Source: a virus. From it: 43,074 nucleotides of DNA. The position numbers and the translations under genes were made by a program. The stretch covers positions 1-43,074 of the IMG/VR virus record IMGVR_UViG_3300009537_000042, one strand, 5' to 3'. The notes beneath the pieces were generated by a model. That model was not told the origin of the DNA. It worked only from the letters and a program-made list of their open reading frames with translations, and searched no databases. Numbering within the stretch: position 1 is the stretch's first letter; each line of letters begins with the position of its first letter. Positions 2,182 through 40,752 of the stretch are shown one piece after another.

Positions 2182-2880
2182 ATGGGCGTGAGTCTTGGTG
2201 ACAGAATGAAAGCCAATTATGAACATAGAACTAGACATTATTTGACGCGTCGCTGCCCAGTAATTATTCGGCTGGATGGCAGGGCGTTTCATTCCTTCAC
2301 TCGCGGCATGAATAAGCCGTTTGATAAAAATTTAATGATGGCAATGTGTCAATCTGCCGCCAGTGTTGCAAAAGATGCCCAGGGGTTTAAGGCGGCGTAT
2401 ATACAGAGTGACGAGGTATCTTTATTACTGACTGATTATGACGACATTACAACAGAAGCATGGTTTGACTACAATCAGTCTAAGATAGAATCAGTATCAG
2501 CATCTTTAATAACTGGATATTTTAATCAATATATTCAAACGGCGCGGCCAGCCGCGTTTGATGCAAGGGCGTTTAACATTCCGTCGGAAGAAATATCCAA
2601 CTATTTTTTATGGAGGGCAAAGGACTGGGAAAGAAATAGCGTGTCTATGTATTGCCAGTCGTTCTTTTCTCACAAGCAGTTGCACAGTAAATGCAGGCAG
2701 GAGCAGCATGATTTATTACATAGTATTGGTAAGAATTGGACGACTGATTTAAGCAATCACGAAAAGAACGGAATGTTTATAGATCGTATCGGCGCGGCTC
2801 ATGTAGATATTGGCCCATCTTTTTTAGAGGTAAATAATTTTATACAAAAGCAACTTGTAACAAATGTAGATATTAAATGA
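2182..2880 (+). CDS. Thg1-like 3'-5' RNA polymerase (tRNA-His guanylyltransferase family)
   Basis: 232 residues, close to the catalytic core length of Thg1-like proteins. Diagnostic motifs are RLDGRAFHSFTRG at 30-42 (Asp32 as a metal ligand), QSDEVSLLLTDY at 75-86 (Asp77), TEAWFDYNQSKI, and NIPSEEISNYFLWR. Thg1 adds G to the 5' end of tRNA-His; bacterial and viral Thg1-like proteins instead repair 5'-truncated tRNAs by templated 3'-5' addition. In a phage this may repair tRNAs damaged by host anticodon or acceptor nucleases, which is inference. Both metal-binding aspartates are present, so the enzyme is likely active. Confidence 0.9.
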   Translation: MGVSLGDRMKANYEHRTRHYLTRRCPVIIRLDGRAFHSFTRGMNKPFDKNLMMAMCQSAASVAKDAQGFKAAYIQSDEVSLLLTDYDDITTEAWFDYNQSKIESVSASLITGYFNQYIQTARPAAFDARAFNIPSEEISNYFLWRAKDWERNSVSMYCQSFFSHKQLHSKCRQEQHDLLHSIGKNWTTDLSNHEKNGMFIDRIGAAHVDIGPSFLEVNNFIQKQLVTNVDIK

Positions 2881-8787: not shown

Positions 8788-9432
8788 ATGCCAACTCCCG
8801 ACTACTCAGGATTGCTTGATGCCCTGCACCGGCAATCACAAGGACAGATGCAGCACGCCCCGCAGAGGCCACCATCCATGAACCCGATGGATGCGATAGC
8901 CCTCTCTACCGCAGCAATTCCAGGGGTGGGGGATGTGACTGGATTATTAGCTGATGCCAGAAGGTTTGCTTATGAACCTGAATCAAGGACTTGGGGTAAT
9001 GCCGCTTTAAGTGGTTTGGGGTTGCTGCCGTTTGTGCCGAGTCTGGGGGTTGTTAAAGCATTGGATGATTTACCACTGACCAATGTAGGTAAAAGTGTAG
9101 ATGGGTTATCAGTGGGGGATGAAATAAAAAATACTCACTCAATCAGTGCGTCATTTAATGATGGTGACTATGAAATATTACCTGGATTAAGGGAAGTTAA
9201 TATTCGTGATTTTAATAGCAAACCAGAAGAATTATTTTACGCAGCAGATGACATTGAAAGAACTCGTAAATTGGCAAAAGAAATAAAATCAAGTGGTTAT
9301 ATTAATCCATTGATTGTTGTGATTGATGAAGAAGGTAAATATATATTGGAGGGTGGGCACAGGCTTGGGGCTTTGAATATTCTTGGTAAAAAGAAATTCC
9401 CCGCATTAGTAGTTAAAGACTTATCGCAATAA
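8788..9432 (+). CDS. Modular cargo-like protein with C-terminal ParB-like domain
   Basis: 214 residues. Residues ~31-90 form a domain (MNPMDAIALSTAAIPGVGD, GLLADARRF, EPESRTWGN, LSGLGLLPFVP) shared with the gene at 9608. The C-terminal half ends in a ParB/sulfiredoxin-like fold: SSGYINPLIVVIDEEGKYI, then LEGGHRLGALNILGKKKFPA, where GGHR is the conserved nucleotide-binding or catalytic motif. Proteins built from a common phage N-terminus and exchangeable effector domains resemble the 'polyvalent' injected proteins described for phages and conjugative elements. Whether this one is packaged in the virion or nicks DNA is inference. Confidence 0.65.
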   Translation: MPTPDYSGLLDALHRQSQGQMQHAPQRPPSMNPMDAIALSTAAIPGVGDVTGLLADARRFAYEPESRTWGNAALSGLGLLPFVPSLGVVKALDDLPLTNVGKSVDGLSVGDEIKNTHSISASFNDGDYEILPGLREVNIRDFNSKPEELFYAADDIERTRKLAKEIKSSGYINPLIVVIDEEGKYILEGGHRLGALNILGKKKFPALVVKDLSQ

Positions 9433-9611
9433 TGTCCACCTCCATCCGTGACTACCGTATCCAGCAACTAGCGCATGAATACTACCAGCGTCTAATCAAA
9501 TACGGTGTGGAATCGGCCTCAATCTGGTTAAGCGACAATATGCAGCATGAAGATATGAACGAATTTAAAGCTATCCAGCCAACGATTGCCGGTAAGTACG
9601 GGTTGAAGTGA
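9432..9611 (+). CDS. Hypothetical protein between the two modular proteins (59 aa)
   Basis: TAATG overlap with the previous stop at its 5' end and GTGA overlap with the next start at its 3' end. It reads MSTSIRDYRIQQLAHEYYQR and then LIKYGVESASIWLSDNM with a helical character. Being locked between two paralogous modular genes, it could be a small partner or immunity-like protein. No domain is recognisable. Confidence 0.6.
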   Translation: MSTSIRDYRIQQLAHEYYQRLIKYGVESASIWLSDNMQHEDMNEFKAIQPTIAGKYGLK

Positions 9612-10285
9612 ACGGGTTACTGGCAGAACAGGGCAACGGGCTACTCGCGGATATGCGTAATGCCCTGTTGCAACAGTCCAGGGCGCAGATGCAACACACC
9701 CCACAGGCCCCTTCCCCGATGAACCCCTTGGATACTATTGCCTTATCAACTATGGCAATCCCCGGTGTCGGTGATGTGGCAGGGTTAGCGGCAGATGCCA
9801 GGCGGTTCATGTTTGAACCGGAATCCCGCACGATGGGAAATTATGCTTTAAGCAGTTTAGGACTACTCCCGTTTGTTCCAAATATGACTTCTATTAAATC
9901 TGTTTCTAAATTACCAGAAGTTAATGTTGATAAGTTTCATATAAATTCAGCTTATGGTCAGAATGATTATATTTCTGTAGCAAAGAATAAGGACGGGGAT
10001 GTAGTTGGCGAACTGTCTTTTAGTGAATATGGAGGAAAGCCACATATAAATATGATTGAGGTTAAGCCAAAATACCGAAGAAAGGGTGTTGGCGCTGAGT
10101 TAATCAGATCGTTGACAAAGCAAAAGAACCAGTATGACCCATCTTGGCAATACAAGGATATACAGTGGGGCATGGCTACTGAAGATGGTATGTGGTTAAA
10201 AAAGAAACTTGATAAGGAATTTTTAGGGCACCCGTTAAGAAATTTAGAAAGAAAAATATTGGAAATACAAAAGGCCAGTAAATAA
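9608..10285 (+). CDS. Modular cargo-like protein with C-terminal GNAT acetyltransferase-like domain
   Basis: 225 residues from a GTG that overlaps the previous TGA. The N-terminal domain (MNPLDTIALSTMAIPGVGDV, LAADARRF, EPESRTMGN, LSSLGLLPFVP) is about 44 of 56 positions identical by eye to that of the gene at 8788. The C-terminus differs completely: INMIEVKPKYRRKGVGAELI is the GNAT motif A (acetyl-CoA pyrophosphate loop R-R-K-G-V-G-A), preceded by strands VVGELSFSEYGG. The likely activity is acetyl transfer, target unknown. This is a clear case of domain replacement behind a shared N-terminus. Confidence 0.7.
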   Translation: MNGLLAEQGNGLLADMRNALLQQSRAQMQHTPQAPSPMNPLDTIALSTMAIPGVGDVAGLAADARRFMFEPESRTMGNYALSSLGLLPFVPNMTSIKSVSKLPEVNVDKFHINSAYGQNDYISVAKNKDGDVVGELSFSEYGGKPHINMIEVKPKYRRKGVGAELIRSLTKQKNQYDPSWQYKDIQWGMATEDGMWLKKKLDKEFLGHPLRNLERKILEIQKASK

Positions 10286-17359: not shown

Positions 17360-18286
17360 ATGTCATTATTACTTTTATTTAAGTCCGGTGGCGCAACCGC
17401 TTATGTTCTACCAGCCGAAGCAGGAAGTTATACTTACACCGGCACGGCAGCCAGTTTATTACGCGGCAGGTTATTAGCCGCTAACGGCAGCAGTTACACT
17501 TATACTGGCACAGCCGCAGGATTATTTTACGGAAGAAAATTAACCGCTGAATCCAGCAGTTACACCTATACCGGAACGGCAGCGAACTTTGTTTATAACC
17601 GTGTTCTGACTGCATCCGGCAGTTCCTACACTTACACTGGCACAGCCGCTAATCTGGCGCGTAGCAGAATCTTCTCCGCAGAGAGTGGTGCTTACACTTA
17701 CACAGGGACAGCGGCGGCATTACAGTACGGAAGAAAGCTGACTGCTGAAGCCGGTGGTTATACTTATACCGGCACACCTGCATCATTATTTTATAACCGC
17801 GTTTTGATCAGCGCGGCAGGCACATATAACTACAGCGGCACAGATGCGGCTTTACTTTATGGAAGATTATTAGCTGCAAGTGGCGGGGCTTATACCTACA
17901 CCGGCACGGATGCAGGACTGATCTACACACCGCAAGGCGCGTATATTCTATCCGCTGAAAGCGGCGCATATAACCTCACCGGCACTGCCGCAAACACGTT
18001 ATGGAACCGGCAGATCATCGCTGGGAATGGAAGTTATAACCTTACTGGCACAGATGCTAGTCTCATTTACACTACCAGTATCACACCGAGAGTCGGCGGC
18101 GGGAAACGTAGAATCCCCCGTATCATCAGGACGTATGTTGAAGATGAGGAATACGATGTTGAACTTGAAATAGCTGCCAAACCGCAATCCAGGTTTGTTG
18201 AAATAGACATGGAGCGTTATGAAAAGATGCTTGAGGAAAAACGTAAATTGAGGAAGAAAAAAGCTGCCGCCTACTTATTACACTGA
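17360..18286 (+). CDS. Repeat-rich surface protein (ten ~22-residue GSYTYTGTAA repeats)
   Basis: 308 residues. From about residue 19 to 245 there are ten imperfect repeats of the form A-x-S-G-S-Y-T-Y-T-G-T-A-A-x-L-x-Y-x-R-x-L. The last two change TYTGT to NLTGT. The basic C-terminus (GGKRRIPRIIRTYVEDEEYD, EEKRKLRKKKAAA) may anchor it to the capsid. Such repeats are seen in phage head-fibre-like proteins. It is coupled to the next gene by ATGA. Confidence 0.65.
   Translation: MSLLLLFKSGGATAYVLPAEAGSYTYTGTAASLLRGRLLAANGSSYTYTGTAAGLFYGRKLTAESSSYTYTGTAANFVYNRVLTASGSSYTYTGTAANLARSRIFSAESGAYTYTGTAAALQYGRKLTAEAGGYTYTGTPASLFYNRVLISAAGTYNYSGTDAALLYGRLLAASGGAYTYTGTDAGLIYTPQGAYILSAESGAYNLTGTAANTLWNRQIIAGNGSYNLTGTDASLIYTTSITPRVGGGKRRIPRIIRTYVEDEEYDVELEIAAKPQSRFVEIDMERYEKMLEEKRKLRKKKAAAYLLH
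17402..18080 (+). repeat. Ten degenerate ~66-bp coding repeats
   Basis: The DNA repeats TAYACYTAYACYGGCAC about every 66 bases inside the gene at 17360. The copies vary at third positions, so amplification is old or under selection for protein sequence. Confidence 0.75.
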
Positions 18287-22183: not shown

Positions 22184-22210
22184 GGGGGCGCACCCCGCGC
22201 CCCCTTTTTT
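22184..22210 (+). terminator. Intrinsic terminator inside the virion gene block
   Basis: GGGGGCGC (22184-22191) and GCGCCCCC (22197-22204) form a perfect 8-bp GC stem with loop ACCCC, followed by six T. It is the strongest terminator seen on the plus strand besides the one at 38945. It lies only 13 bases before the next ATG, so it must leak or be antiterminated, or the downstream genes have another promoter. Confidence 0.8.
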
Positions 22211-33330: not shown

Positions 33331-33653
33331 TTCTCCTCCAGTGCTGCACGGAGCATGGCTTTGTAAACGCTTAATTCAACTCCTGTTGTAAAAAATTCAT
33401 AAGTATTATGTCCAAAACCGTCACAACCACTGTCATACGTGCTGTCTTTGTGATCATCTATGGCATCCTCTCCAGCAATAATCATTTCCTTTGTAACATC
33501 AGCATCAATCAGTGCTTGTATGGCGGCTTTGGCTGTATTGTCATAAATATGTTTACTAATACCGCGATAAGTTGTTTCCAAATTTAATTTAGAATCAATG
33601 TCCGACAACTCAGATTTACATATTGCCTTCGCAACTTGTTCAATAAGTGTCAT
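33327..33653 (-). CDS. Hypothetical protein (108 aa)
   Basis: Helical N-terminus MTLIEQVAKAICKSELSDID, then AAIQALIDADVTKEMIIAGE and an acidic Asp/Gly/Tyr stretch (DSTYDSGCDGFGHNTYEFF). It looks like a common small phage protein of the 'E-x-V-A-x-A-I' type with no known role. ATGA overlaps at both ends. Confidence 0.55.
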   Translation of the reverse strand: MTLIEQVAKAICKSELSDIDSKLNLETTYRGISKHIYDNTAKAAIQALIDADVTKEMIIAGEDAIDDHKDSTYDSGCDGFGHNTYEFFTTGVELSVYKAMLRAALEEK

Positions 33654-34018
33654 TTCTCATCCTCTGGTGGTGCGGGTAGTGGCATCCAGTGTGTTACTTG
33701 TGGTGGCGAAAGAGCATCTTCTATATCTTTTGGTATACCAGCATCCCAATACAGTATTGTCCACCTACCAACAGGGCTGTACCAACCAAGTGTTGTGTCG
33801 CCACAATAAACAAGCACATTACCTCTATGCTCAGGCAATCTCTCACTTACAGATATCCACTTATTAGCCTCCAATTCCTTTATCCTGACATTGGCGGTAG
33901 TGAGTTCTTTTTCTAGTGTCTCTGAATGGGTAATCATAAAGTTTGTCGGATACGTCATAACATAGCCTTTATCAATTAAAAACTGTTTATGTGCATCAGT
34001 TCTAGGTGTCTTACTCAT
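33650..34018 (-). CDS. DUF551 domain protein
   Basis: 122 residues. The C-terminal 70 residues follow the DUF551 pattern: WISVSERLPEHRGNVLVYCG, then VTHWMPLPAPPEDEK. DUF551 is widespread in phages and prophages and its function is unknown. The N-terminal half (PRTDAHKQFLIDKGYVMTYP, LEKELTTANVRIKELEANK) resembles phage proteins with a predicted helix and coiled coil. Confidence 0.75.
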   Translation of the reverse strand: MSKTPRTDAHKQFLIDKGYVMTYPTNFMITHSETLEKELTTANVRIKELEANKWISVSERLPEHRGNVLVYCGDTTLGWYSPVGRWTILYWDAGIPKDIEDALSPPQVTHWMPLPAPPEDEK

Positions 34019-37812: not shown

Positions 37813-38694
37813 TTAATTAGTGGTGGGGGTGTGTTCACATATAGATATTAATTGCATTACCCGCGCCCTTGATAAGCCAAGATTACTGGTAATCTCATTA
37901 ATTGAATATCCTTGCTCGCGCATGTTTTTGATTGTGGTAACATGTTGTTTTGTTTTCTTGGCTTGGAAAAGACGGGCACAAGCAAAACCGTTAGTCTGCC
38001 TGGAATTTTCCTCAAGGCTGACCAGATGCACATTGTCTGGTGTAAAATCCTTGCTTTTATCTTTTCTGCCCAAGACTAAACTACTTCTTTTCAGACCGAT
38101 TTTATGAATGTGCGGGGTAATAAATTCTGCATACTCAGGCAGTGTAATACCCCATATCAAGCCTGCCCTAGTAGCGGTATATTTGTGGTGTAAATAGAGT
38201 TTGATAAGTTTGCTGTTCCTGCCCAAACGGGCACAGCCAGTAAGTTCTCTGAATACATCAAAACTACACCCGTATTGGCGCTGACAGCGTTCTTCTCTTG
38301 CTTCAATTCCCGCCTGTTCACGCCTTGCGGTATTGGAAATGCAACGCTGGTGCGCACCGCCATCATTAGCAGTTACGCCAACCGTTACGAGAATCTGCCG
38401 GACACGCTCTCTTGTTATCCCTTCCACCGCGCCGATTTCTGCGAGTGTCATGGTTTTGTACATTTCCTTATAACGGAGAGCGCGTGGCATATTTTTTTCT
38501 ACCGTTTTTTGTCGGCGATCCTGTTTATACAAATCCAGCGTGATTTTGATTTCTTCAATATCATCTGGTTTCCAGAATTGCCGTTGTCCGGCAATAACAG
38601 TCGGCTTAATTATGCCGCACGATACCAACGTCCTGAATTTTGCCAGTGAAACATCAACCAATTTTGCGGTTTCTGCTTGAGTTAATAGTTGCAT
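37813..38694 (-). CDS. Multi-HTH transcriptional regulator at the head of the leftward operon
   Basis: 293 residues. Residues 1-50 (LLTQAETAKLVDVSLAKFRT, GQRQFWKPDDIEEI) form a MerR/excisionase-like winged helix. Residues 82-102 (MTLAEIGAVEGITRERVRQI) match sigma-70 region 4.2. The central part has LKRSSLVLGRKDKSKDFTPD and NVHLVSLEENS, which resembles a worn HNH domain. The C-terminus has a third helix-turn-helix (GYSINEITSNLGLSRARVMQ). It is transcribed divergently from the plus early genes, so it is a good candidate for the switch protein. Confidence 0.65.
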   Translation of the reverse strand: MQLLTQAETAKLVDVSLAKFRTLVSCGIIKPTVIAGQRQFWKPDDIEEIKITLDLYKQDRRQKTVEKNMPRALRYKEMYKTMTLAEIGAVEGITRERVRQILVTVGVTANDGGAHQRCISNTARREQAGIEAREERCQRQYGCSFDVFRELTGCARLGRNSKLIKLYLHHKYTATRAGLIWGITLPEYAEFITPHIHKIGLKRSSLVLGRKDKSKDFTPDNVHLVSLEENSRQTNGFACARLFQAKKTKQHVTTIKNMREQGYSINEITSNLGLSRARVMQLISICEHTPTTN

Positions 38695-38701
38695 ATTGAG
38701 A

Positions 38702-38730
38702 ATTATGGGCTATAGTAACAGCATTGTCAA
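38702..38730 (-). promoter_or_regulatory. Minus-strand promoter for the regulator operon
   Basis: TTGACA (minus, 38730-38725), 17-base spacer, CATAAT (minus, 38707-38702; one mismatch to TATAAT). The ATG of the regulator lies seven bases after the -10, so the message should be leaderless or nearly so, as for lambda cI from PRM. Confidence 0.75.
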
Positions 38731-38772
38731 ATTAATTATTCTATTATATTGCGGTGCACAAAGAAACAGTCA

Positions 38773-38802
38773 TTGACAGACCTATAAATTATAGGCTAAA
38801 CT
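38773..38802 (+). promoter_or_regulatory. Plus-strand promoter for the rightward block
   Basis: A perfect -35 TTGACA at 38773-38778, 18-base spacer, and TAAACT at 38797-38802 (4 of 6). Its spacer is filled by a dyad, so strength may depend on a regulator. Transcription would start near 38809. An alternative TTGTCA with TATATT lies at 38724-38750 but has only 15 bases of spacing. Confidence 0.5.
38781..38795. promoter_or_regulatory. Operator-like perfect dyad CCTATAAATTATAGG
   Basis: Two 7-bp arms around one central base lie entirely between the -35 and -10 of the plus promoter. A protein bound here would block RNA polymerase. The divergent regulator is the obvious candidate ligand, but this is inference. 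A related CTATAG core is present at 38710-38715 in the minus promoter. Confidence 0.6.
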
Positions 38803-38971
38803 CCACCATAACTGATAAAATTGGCGCAGACATGATATGCGGCACATAGAACGGCAAAATTCAACCATGGGCAAATTTGATGCCTTGTAGGGCATTTTTA
38901 CAGCACCGCACTACTCCCCCTCCTCCTATATATGTGCGGTTTACGGGGCAGTCTCCCACTGCCCCTTTTTT
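38803..38971 (+). ncRNA. Candidate small RNA or attenuated leader with C-rich loop
   Basis: Downstream of the plus promoter there is no gene until 38989, but three hairpins follow in a row: GATGCC/GGCATT (38879-38884/38891-38896, with G-U), ACCGCAC/GTGCGGT (38905-38911/38934-38940) and GGGGCAGT/ACTGCCCC (38945-38952/38958-38965) plus T6. The middle loop is 22 nt and contains CCCCCTCCTCCT, complementary to Shine-Dalgarno sequences; the terminator loop is CTCCC. A transcript of about 160 nt would be released at 38971. The 5' end is approximate. Confidence 0.55.
38945..38971 (+). terminator. Strong intrinsic terminator between plus promoter and first gene
   Basis: Perfect 8-bp stem GGGGCAGT/ACTGCCCC, loop CTCCC and six T. 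It is oriented on the plus strand, just 18 bases before the first rightward gene, so it either ends a small RNA or acts as an attenuator that must be overcome to express the block. Confidence 0.85.
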
Positions 38972-38988
38972 AATATGAAGCAGGCTGG

Positions 38989-39228
38989 ATGATGAACCTT
39001 GTTGAATTAATGGCGGAAGATCAGGATCAATATGACTCGCCATGCAAGTACGGGAATATCGTAGCTGGTCATGCTTGCTACTGTCACCATCCAGACAGTC
39101 TCAGAAAATGTCCCGTCTGGAAATATTACGGAGAACAACTGGACAAATGGCACAATCGCGGTAATTGGAATGAGGAATCATGGGATGGCGGCTGTCAATA
39201 TTTCGAGCCACAAGAGCAAGCGGGGTAA
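38989..39228 (+). CDS. Cys-rich small protein, first gene of rightward block
   Basis: 79 residues. MMNLVELMAEDQDQYDSPCK is followed by several Cys and His in CYCHHPDSLRKCPVWKYYGE and a final GGCQYFEP. Two adjacent ATG codons; AGGCTGG upstream. Such small Cys/His-rich phage proteins are often host-takeover or zinc-binding proteins. Function unknown. It lies right after the terminator. Confidence 0.6.
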   Translation: MMNLVELMAEDQDQYDSPCKYGNIVAGHACYCHHPDSLRKCPVWKYYGEQLDKWHNRGNWNEESWDGGCQYFEPQEQAG

Positions 39229-40147: not shown

Positions 40148-40171
40148 ATGATAGGAAGGTACTGTGAATGA
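40148..40171 (+). CDS. 7-codon micro-cistron ahead of the methylase-like gene
   Basis: ATG 40148 with SD AGAGGAA encodes MIGRYCE and stops with a TGA that overlaps the next ATG. The GGAAGG within it is the SD of the next gene. A second 12-codon frame (40094-40132) lies just upstream. Both fill the 86-base gap 40082-40167. Confidence 0.35.
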   Translation: MIGRYCE

Positions 40172-40752
40172 AAGTATTAATCGCCTGTGAGTTTTCCGGG
40201 ATTGTCCGTGATGCTTTTATAGCAAGAGGCCATGATGCAATGAGTTGTGATCTGTTACCGACTGAATCACCGGGCCCACATTATCAGGGTGATGTGCTTG
40301 ACATTCTGGAAGATGGCTGGGACATGATGATAGCCCATCCGCCCTGTACTCATCTGGCTGTCTCCGGCGCGAGGTGGTTCAAGGATAAACAGAAAGAACA
40401 ACAGGAAGCGATAGATTTCTTCATGAATTTGATTAACGCACCAGTACCAATGATATGCGTTGAAAACCCTGTATCCATTATGTCCACAAAATACCGCAAG
40501 CCAGATCAGATTATTCAGCCCTGGCAATTCGGGCATGGCGAGACAAAAGCAACGTGTTTATGGTTAAAGAGCCTGCCAAAACTGATACCCACAAAATTTG
40601 TTGATGGCAGGGAAAACAGAATACACCGAATGGCTCCTAGCCCGAACCGGAGTAAAGATCGAAGTCTGACTTATCAAGGTATAGCCAACGCAATGGCTGA
40701 TCAATGGGGCGTACTGGAACACGAGGAAATGGTGAGGGAGTATTGTGGATGA
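40168..40752 (+). CDS. DNA cytosine-C5-methylase-like protein
   Basis: 194 residues. MKVLIACEFSGIVRDAFIAR is a SAM-binding-like start and HPPCTHLAVSGARWF at ~55-69 resembles motif IV (P-P-C) of C5-cytosine methyltransferases, with ENPVSIMSTKYRKPDQIIQP and RSLTYQGIANAMADQWG later. Phages widely carry this compact form; target recognition is not visible. The enzyme may protect DNA from restriction, but catalytic competence is uncertain because the usual target-recognition and motif VIII-X regions are compressed. Confidence 0.6.
   Translation: MKVLIACEFSGIVRDAFIARGHDAMSCDLLPTESPGPHYQGDVLDILEDGWDMMIAHPPCTHLAVSGARWFKDKQKEQQEAIDFFMNLINAPVPMICVENPVSIMSTKYRKPDQIIQPWQFGHGETKATCLWLKSLPKLIPTKFVDGRENRIHRMAPSPNRSKDRSLTYQGIANAMADQWGVLEHEEMVREYCG

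What the first reader, a model, noticed from the sequence alone, without database searches (positions are those of the whole stretch)
38803..38971. Candidate small RNA with an anti-Shine-Dalgarno loop at the genetic switch
Between the plus promoter and the first gene lie three consecutive hairpins ending in a textbook terminator. The central loop displays CCCCCTCCTCCT, complementary to ribosome binding sites, and the terminator loop is CTCCC. Exposed C-rich loops are the seed of several bacterial sRNAs that silence translation (for example the CCUCCUCC-type RNAs of rhizobia and UCCC motifs of S. aureus RNAIII). Strong phage or host SDs such as AGGAGA would be targets. Alternatively the same RNA is an attenuator that makes rightward expression depend on antitermination.
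Basis: partly seen in the sequence, partly recalled or inferred. Interest (0 to 1): 0.76.

Follow-up and report, generated by a model that had tools for sequence, protein, structure and literature searches.

The report
Phage early-operon leader with terminator
In an uncultured podovirus-like phage, the strongest rightward promoter is followed about 160 bases later by a strong transcription terminator before any gene begins, so it probably makes a short structured RNA by default and must be overridden to switch on the rightward genes; a C-rich loop in that RNA resembles those of ribosome-site-blocking small RNAs, but that role is untested.

Summary
The anatomy is real. Downstream of a strong sigma70-like promoter (38773-38802) lie three hairpins (38880-38895, 38905-38940, 38945-38965), each predicted at about 0.9 probability or more. 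The last is followed by T6, one of only two canonical terminators in the window. The 14-nt pyrimidine tract CUCCCCCUCCUCCU sits in a 22-nt loop predicted fully unpaired. The three-hairpin stretch is far more stable than shuffles (z -5.1, 0/500), although the whole leader is not (z -0.7). First gene: 38989. The rightward unit has no better promoter, so its expression should need read-through.

New here: an 11-bp helix (38881-38891 with 38940-38950) excludes both hairpin 1 and the terminator, and 1/2000 shuffles match it (post hoc). This is attenuator anatomy.

The anti-Shine-Dalgarno sRNA reading is possible but unproven. Rfam's closest family is indeed ar14 (three CCUCCUCCC hairpins), but far below threshold (18.2 vs 58.8 bits). 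The tract fits SD zones, but only its core beats scrambled controls, and weakly. No relative carries the leader, so conservation could not be tested. 'Genetic switch' is positional: no recognised repressor or integrase was found.

Verdict: conditional leader terminator (attenuator) that releases a ~163-nt RNA; sRNA activity is a secondary hypothesis.

The parts
38702..38730 (-). Leftward early promoter, TTGACA-17-CATAAT; its start point would lie at the ATG of the 293-aa gene (leaderless mRNA)
   Evidence: Consensus scan, 11/12, best of the window; sequence
38773..38802 (+). Rightward promoter, TTGACA-18-TAAACT
   Evidence: Consensus scan, 10/12
38781..38795 (.). Perfect 7-1-7 palindrome CCTATAAATTATAGG between -35 and -10; possible operator
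   Evidence: Only exact copy in the window; 108/5000 shuffles of the region have such a palindrome
38809..38971 (+). Predicted leader RNA of about 163 nt (start inferred from the promoter, +/-3; end inferred from the terminator)
   Evidence: Fold -44.2 kcal/mol; stretch 38878-38971 z -5.1, 0/500 shuffles
38880..38895 (+). Hairpin 1, AUGCCUUGUAGGGCAU
   Evidence: Pair probabilities 0.81-0.95
38905..38940 (+). Hairpin 2, 7-bp stem ACCGCAC/GUGCGGU with 22-nt loop
   Evidence: Pair probabilities 0.87-0.997
38914..38927 (+). Exposed pyrimidine tract CUCCCCCUCCUCCU in the loop of hairpin 2
   Evidence: Unpaired probability 1.00
38945..38971 (+). Intrinsic terminator, 8-bp stem, loop CUCCC, T6
   Evidence: one of two canonical terminators in the window
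38881..38891 (+). 5' strand of the alternative antiterminator helix (overlaps hairpin 1)
   Evidence: 11 contiguous pairs with 38940-38950; 1/2000 dinucleotide shuffles reach this; dominant in the transcript truncated at 38952
38940..38950 (+). 3' strand of the alternative antiterminator helix (overlaps the 5' arm of the terminator)
38989..39228 (+). First gene of the rightward unit, 79-aa Cys/His-rich protein, function unknown
   Evidence: ORF; relatives in three viral contigs, none with this leader
37813..38694 (-). First gene of the leftward unit, 293-aa protein with sigma70-region-4-like and other HTH matches; candidate regulator
   Evidence: Pfam Sigma70_r4 E 7.4e-12, weak PHROG HTH matches; no close relatives found

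Best explanation
It is the leader of the rightward transcription unit and works as a default-off attenuator. Host RNA polymerase starts near 38809, makes about 163 nt of structured RNA and mostly stops at 38971, before the first gene at 38989. Rightward genes are expressed only by read-through or active antitermination. Within the leader, the 5' arm of hairpin 1 can pair with its own 3' arm (terminator allowed) or with the 5' arm of the terminator (antiterminator, 38881-38891 with 38940-38950), so a factor that opens hairpin 1 or holds the antiterminator would turn the unit on. Hairpin 2 and its C-rich loop persist in both states and could be the docking site of that factor; the released short RNA may also act in trans. 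Shown by sequence and computation: promoter match, terminator, hairpins, alternative helix, lack of a comparable promoter between terminator and first gene. Inferred: start and end of the RNA, termination efficiency, the inducing factor, any trans role.
For: Best-scoring divergent promoter pair of the window, and a canonical terminator between the rightward promoter and the first gene. Only two canonical terminators in 43 kb. All ORFs kept from 38989 to the end and from the start to 32683 are rightward, and the only other + strand match of 10/12 or more inside that unit is a hexamer pair at 1828. Three-hairpin stretch z -5.1. The 11-bp alternative helix is matched by 1/2000 shuffles, its duplex energy by 25/2000; full leader -44.2 (terminator) against -38.6 kcal/mol (antiterminator forced); the antiterminator dominates in the transcript truncated at 38952 (pair probability about 0.77).
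Against: No RNA data. No related leader, so no covariation or conservation evidence. The antiterminator was noticed after the fact, and a looser test (share of the terminator's 5' arm that is paired) is not significant (84/300). No lambda-type boxA in the leader and no recognised antitermination protein among the genes scanned. The terminator state is favoured by 5.6 kcal/mol, so a switch needs an unidentified factor. Weaker promoters further down could feed the unit.
Confidence: 0.55

Rival explanations
1. Trans-acting small RNA: the terminated leader RNA silences phage or host mRNAs by pairing its exposed CCCCCUCCUCCU loop (and perhaps the CUCCC terminator loop) with Shine-Dalgarno sequences, as in the ar14/NfeR1, LhrC and RsaE type of sRNA.
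For: Loop fully unpaired. The best Rfam match over all 4227 families is ar14, with two of its hairpins and the U-run aligned (18.2 bits, E 0.23). The loop pairs best at -18 to -12 of the phage genes, the SD zone, and its core CUCCUCCUAU beats most scrambles (13/300 as strong). Best own targets: start regions at 33650-34018(-) -17.1 and 42818(+) -16.8 kcal/mol. NfeR1 blocks ntrB translation through such loops (PMC10746234); LhrC carries a CUCCC terminator loop (PMC4132741).
Against: ar14 score far below the gathering cut-off of 58.8 and no match in the whole-record search. The whole loop is no better than scrambles of the same composition (256/300, 106/300). CCTCCTCC occurs at about chance frequency in the window. 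Host and host mRNAs unknown. No homologue to test loop conservation; in the related contigs and phages scanned no terminator has a CCTCC-loop hairpin upstream.
Confidence: 0.25
2. Simple insulator: a constitutive leader terminator that only dampens leak from the rightward promoter; the C-rich loop and the alternative helix are accidents.
For: Terminator strong and self-sufficient; motif frequency at chance; no conservation seen; one looser antiterminator test not significant.
Against: The unit behind it holds recombination, lysis and structural genes and lacks another comparable promoter near its start, so permanent termination would be costly. An 11-bp mutually exclusive helix is rare in shuffles.
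Confidence: 0.17
3. True member of the ar14/cuckoo sRNA family acquired by the phage from an alphaproteobacterial host.
For: ar14 is the top sub-threshold Rfam match; distant structural-gene relatives include phages of alphaproteobacteria.
Against: 40 bits below the cut-off; one full motif instead of three; no match in the whole-record search; host unknown.
Confidence: 0.03

Closest known systems
Bacteriophage lambda p'R leader (lambda 6S RNA, p'R to tR', Q-dependent)
   Same: Strong promoter followed within about 200 nt by an intrinsic terminator before any gene; a short RNA is released by default and a large unit depends on antitermination (own knowledge; lambda 6S is listed among Hfq-dependent phage sRNAs in PMC12197685)
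   Different: Here it is at the divergent early promoter region, no Q homologue was recognised, and there is a C-rich loop and a predicted RNA antiterminator
ar14 / NfeR1 (RF02344) and the CcsR/cuckoo RNAs
   Same: Hairpins with exposed CCUCC-type loops and a terminator; the published structure also has three hairpins (PMC10746234)
   Different: One full tract plus a CUCCC loop instead of three identical CCUCCUCCC motifs; 18.2 against 58.8 bits; phage leader, not a stand-alone alphaproteobacterial gene
LhrC (Listeria) and RsaE/RNAIII (S. aureus) UCCC-loop sRNAs
   Same: CUCCC in a terminator loop and a C-rich upstream loop able to pair with G-rich SDs (PMC4132741; PMC9266662)
   Different: No relation found by Rfam; different genomic context
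Transcription attenuators with mutually exclusive terminator and antiterminator (trp/pyr type)
   Same: Hairpin 1 versus antiterminator versus terminator in one leader
   Different: No ligand, leader peptide with SD, or binding protein identified
Lambda N/nut and HK022 put antitermination leaders
   Same: RNA element between early promoter and early genes (own knowledge)
   Different: No boxA-like site in the leader; put elements were not tested with a model

Membership tests
ar14 sRNA (RF02344) | Score at or above Rfam's gathering cut-off (58.8 bits) | tested here: not met
   18.2 bits, E 0.23 in a 351-nt search; no match in the whole-record search
ar14 sRNA (RF02344) | Three hairpins, each with CCUCCUCCC in an unpaired region (PMC10746234) | tested here: not met
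   One loop with CCCCCUCCUCCU, one with CUCCC, one with UGUA
Transcription attenuator / leader terminator | Intrinsic terminator between promoter and first gene | tested here: met
   38945-38971, gene at 38989, promoter at 38773-38802
Transcription attenuator / leader terminator | Mutually exclusive antiterminator structure | tested here: met
   11-bp helix 38881-38891/38940-38950, 1/2000 shuffles; predicted only, post hoc and in one sequence
Transcription attenuator / leader terminator | Regulated read-through | not testable with these tools
   Needs RNA 3'-end data
Lambda N/nut type antitermination | boxA (YGCTCTTTA) in the leader | tested here: not met
   No site with up to one mismatch between 38700 and 39000
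Lambda Q / p'R type late leader | Q-type antitermination protein encoded | tested here: inconclusive
   No such PHROG, Pfam or NCBIfam match among the genes scanned, but not every ORF was scanned and many proteins have no match
SD-targeting C-rich-loop sRNA (functional class) | Exposed C-rich loop able to pair with SDs | tested here: met
   Unpaired p 1.00; strongest pairing at -18 to -12
SD-targeting C-rich-loop sRNA (functional class) | Pairing stronger than composition-matched controls | tested here: inconclusive
   Whole loop no better than scrambles; core 13/300, 12-mer 20/300, 16S aSD control 1/300
SD-targeting C-rich-loop sRNA (functional class) | Loop conserved while stems vary | not testable with these tools
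   No homologous leader found

The most novel reading that the evidence does not exclude
A dual-function phage leader: by default the rightward promoter yields a terminated RNA that mimics the ribosome's anti-Shine-Dalgarno sequence and damps translation of host or leftward phage mRNAs, and when a phage factor flips the antiterminator the same transcript is extended into the rightward genes, so silencing and operon activation are two outputs of one RNA switch.
Probability: 0.15. Interest if true: 0.7.

Novelty: new member of a known kind. Interest (0 to 1): 0.4.

Why it matters
If right, most of this phage's genome (the rightward unit with recombination, lysis and structural genes) is gated by one early leader terminator, which would point to an unrecognised antitermination factor in a distant LUZ24-like phage. 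If the released RNA also blocks ribosome binding sites, it would be a phage example of the anti-Shine-Dalgarno sRNAs known from alphaproteobacteria.

Tried and rejected
Rfam at gathering threshold: nothing. DNA similarity of 38600-39200 to phages: none. Homologues of the 293-aa protein: none in viral contigs, phage records or related records. Homologues of the 79-aa protein: three, each without this leader. Exact terminator in viral contigs: none. Exact loop 20-mer: two hits in one and the same unrelated sequence. Portal-based relatives in genome contigs: none; in viral contigs 13, none with the leader. Terminase scan: none. Lambda boxA: absent from the leader. Leader peptide: ORFs of 17 and 7 aa end in hairpin 1 but have no clear SD. 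Antisense to the left mRNA: not above shuffles (28/100). Structure prediction of the 293-aa protein from a single sequence: pLDDT 38.5, uninformative. Chance reading of the hairpins: rejected for 38878-38971 (z -5.1), not for the 5' 70 nt.

Full report
WHAT THE WINDOW IS. The window is a 43,074-base virus record. Its major head protein (phrog_1328), portal (phrog_1216) and terminase place it among distant relatives of LUZ24-like and other podovirus-type phages, with best identities of about 36-42% in named phages. In the gene set used here, genes run leftward from 38694 to 32705 and rightward from 38989 to the end and from the start to 32683. The right and left edges may join in a circular or permuted genome, but that is inference. 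No integrase or CI/Cro-type repressor was recognised among the genes scanned, so 'genetic switch' is a statement about position only.

THE OBSERVATION. The divergent promoter pair 38730-38702(-) and 38773-38802(+) contains the best sigma70-like match of the window (11/12) and one of the few 10/12 matches. A perfect 7-1-7 palindrome sits between -35 and -10 of the rightward promoter (108/5000 shuffles have one) and could be an operator. From about 38809 the leader folds into a weak 5' part and three firm hairpins. The pyrimidine tract 38914-38927 is unpaired with probability 1.00, and the last hairpin is a canonical terminator. The three-hairpin stretch is clearly non-random (z -5.1, 0/500), whereas the whole interval is not (z -0.67).

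IS THE C-RICH LOOP SPECIAL? CCTCCTCC occurs once in the window, with 0.77 expected. Its frequency is therefore unremarkable, but its only copy lies in an open loop of the leader. In the related viral contigs and named phages scanned, no terminator has a CCTCC-loop hairpin within 300 nt upstream. Against all 4227 Rfam families the best match to the region is ar14, whose members carry three CCUCCUCCC hairpins (PMC10746234). The score is 18.2 bits against a cut-off of 58.8, E 0.23, and nothing is found when the whole record is searched. It is a resemblance, not membership.

PAIRING WITH START REGIONS. For 68 start regions the loop pairs best at -18 to -12, as the 16S anti-SD does. The 16S anti-SD control beats its scrambles (1/300), so the test is sensitive. 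The loop core (13/300) and the 12-mer (20/300) are weakly better than scrambles, but the whole 22-nt loop is not (106/300; 256/300 with longer regions). The best candidates are the genes 33650-34018(-) and 42818(+) (-17.1 and -16.8 kcal/mol). The first leftward gene has no SD match and is probably leaderless.

ATTENUATOR ANATOMY. Folding truncated transcripts showed that the 5' arm of the terminator first pairs upstream. The partner is 38881-38891, the 5' half of hairpin 1, in an 11-bp helix with 38940-38950. Only 1 of 2000 dinucleotide shuffles of the upstream leader gives a helix this long, and 25 of 2000 an equal duplex energy. A looser measure was not significant (84/300), and the test was chosen after seeing the helix. 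With the helix forced (its inner ten pairs), the full leader has -38.6 kcal/mol against -44.2 with the terminator. The terminator therefore wins unless something intervenes: a default-off attenuator. Hairpin 2 and its loop persist in both states.

RELATIVES. The 79-aa protein has relatives in three viral contigs, all in other contexts and without the leader. Portal-based relatives and named phages share structural genes but not this region. Conservation and covariation are therefore untested, the main limit of this report.

CONCLUSION. The most likely reading is a conditional leader terminator of the rightward unit that releases a ~163-nt RNA (0.55). A trans-acting anti-SD sRNA is possible (0.25), and an accidental insulator is the main deflating rival (0.17). 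No transcript has been shown.

Noticed in passing
22184-22204 (+): The only other canonical terminator of the window, GGGGGCGCACCCCGCGCCCCC-TTTTTT, directly after the 444-aa gene that follows the major head gene; some related phages also have a terminator near the end of the major capsid gene.
   Followed up: partly
8788-9432 and 9608-10285 (+): Two neighbouring proteins share a similar N-terminal part (about 90 aa) but end in different domains, ParB-like and acetyltransferase-like: a modular pair.
   Followed up: no
2182-2880 (+): tRNA-His guanylyltransferase (Thg1-like) gene in a phage genome with no tRNA genes found.
   Followed up: no
1-109: The record starts inside a 12-bp tandem repeat (ACGGCTACGGCG, about 9 copies) that reads as a Thr-Ala repeat; the contig probably broke there.
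   Followed up: no
37813-38694 (-): 293-aa protein with a sigma70-region-4-like HTH, an N-terminal excisionase-like and a C-terminal HTH match, no relatives found, and a start codon at the predicted transcription start (leaderless mRNA).
   Followed up: partly
40168-40752 (+): Small DNA methyltransferase (phrog_757) up to 72% identical to gp12 of Prochlorococcus podoviruses, far closer than the structural genes tested are to any named phage.
   Followed up: no
17360-18286 (+): Protein made of repeats of the type TYTGTAAxLxYGRxLxA, no PHROG match.
   Followed up: no
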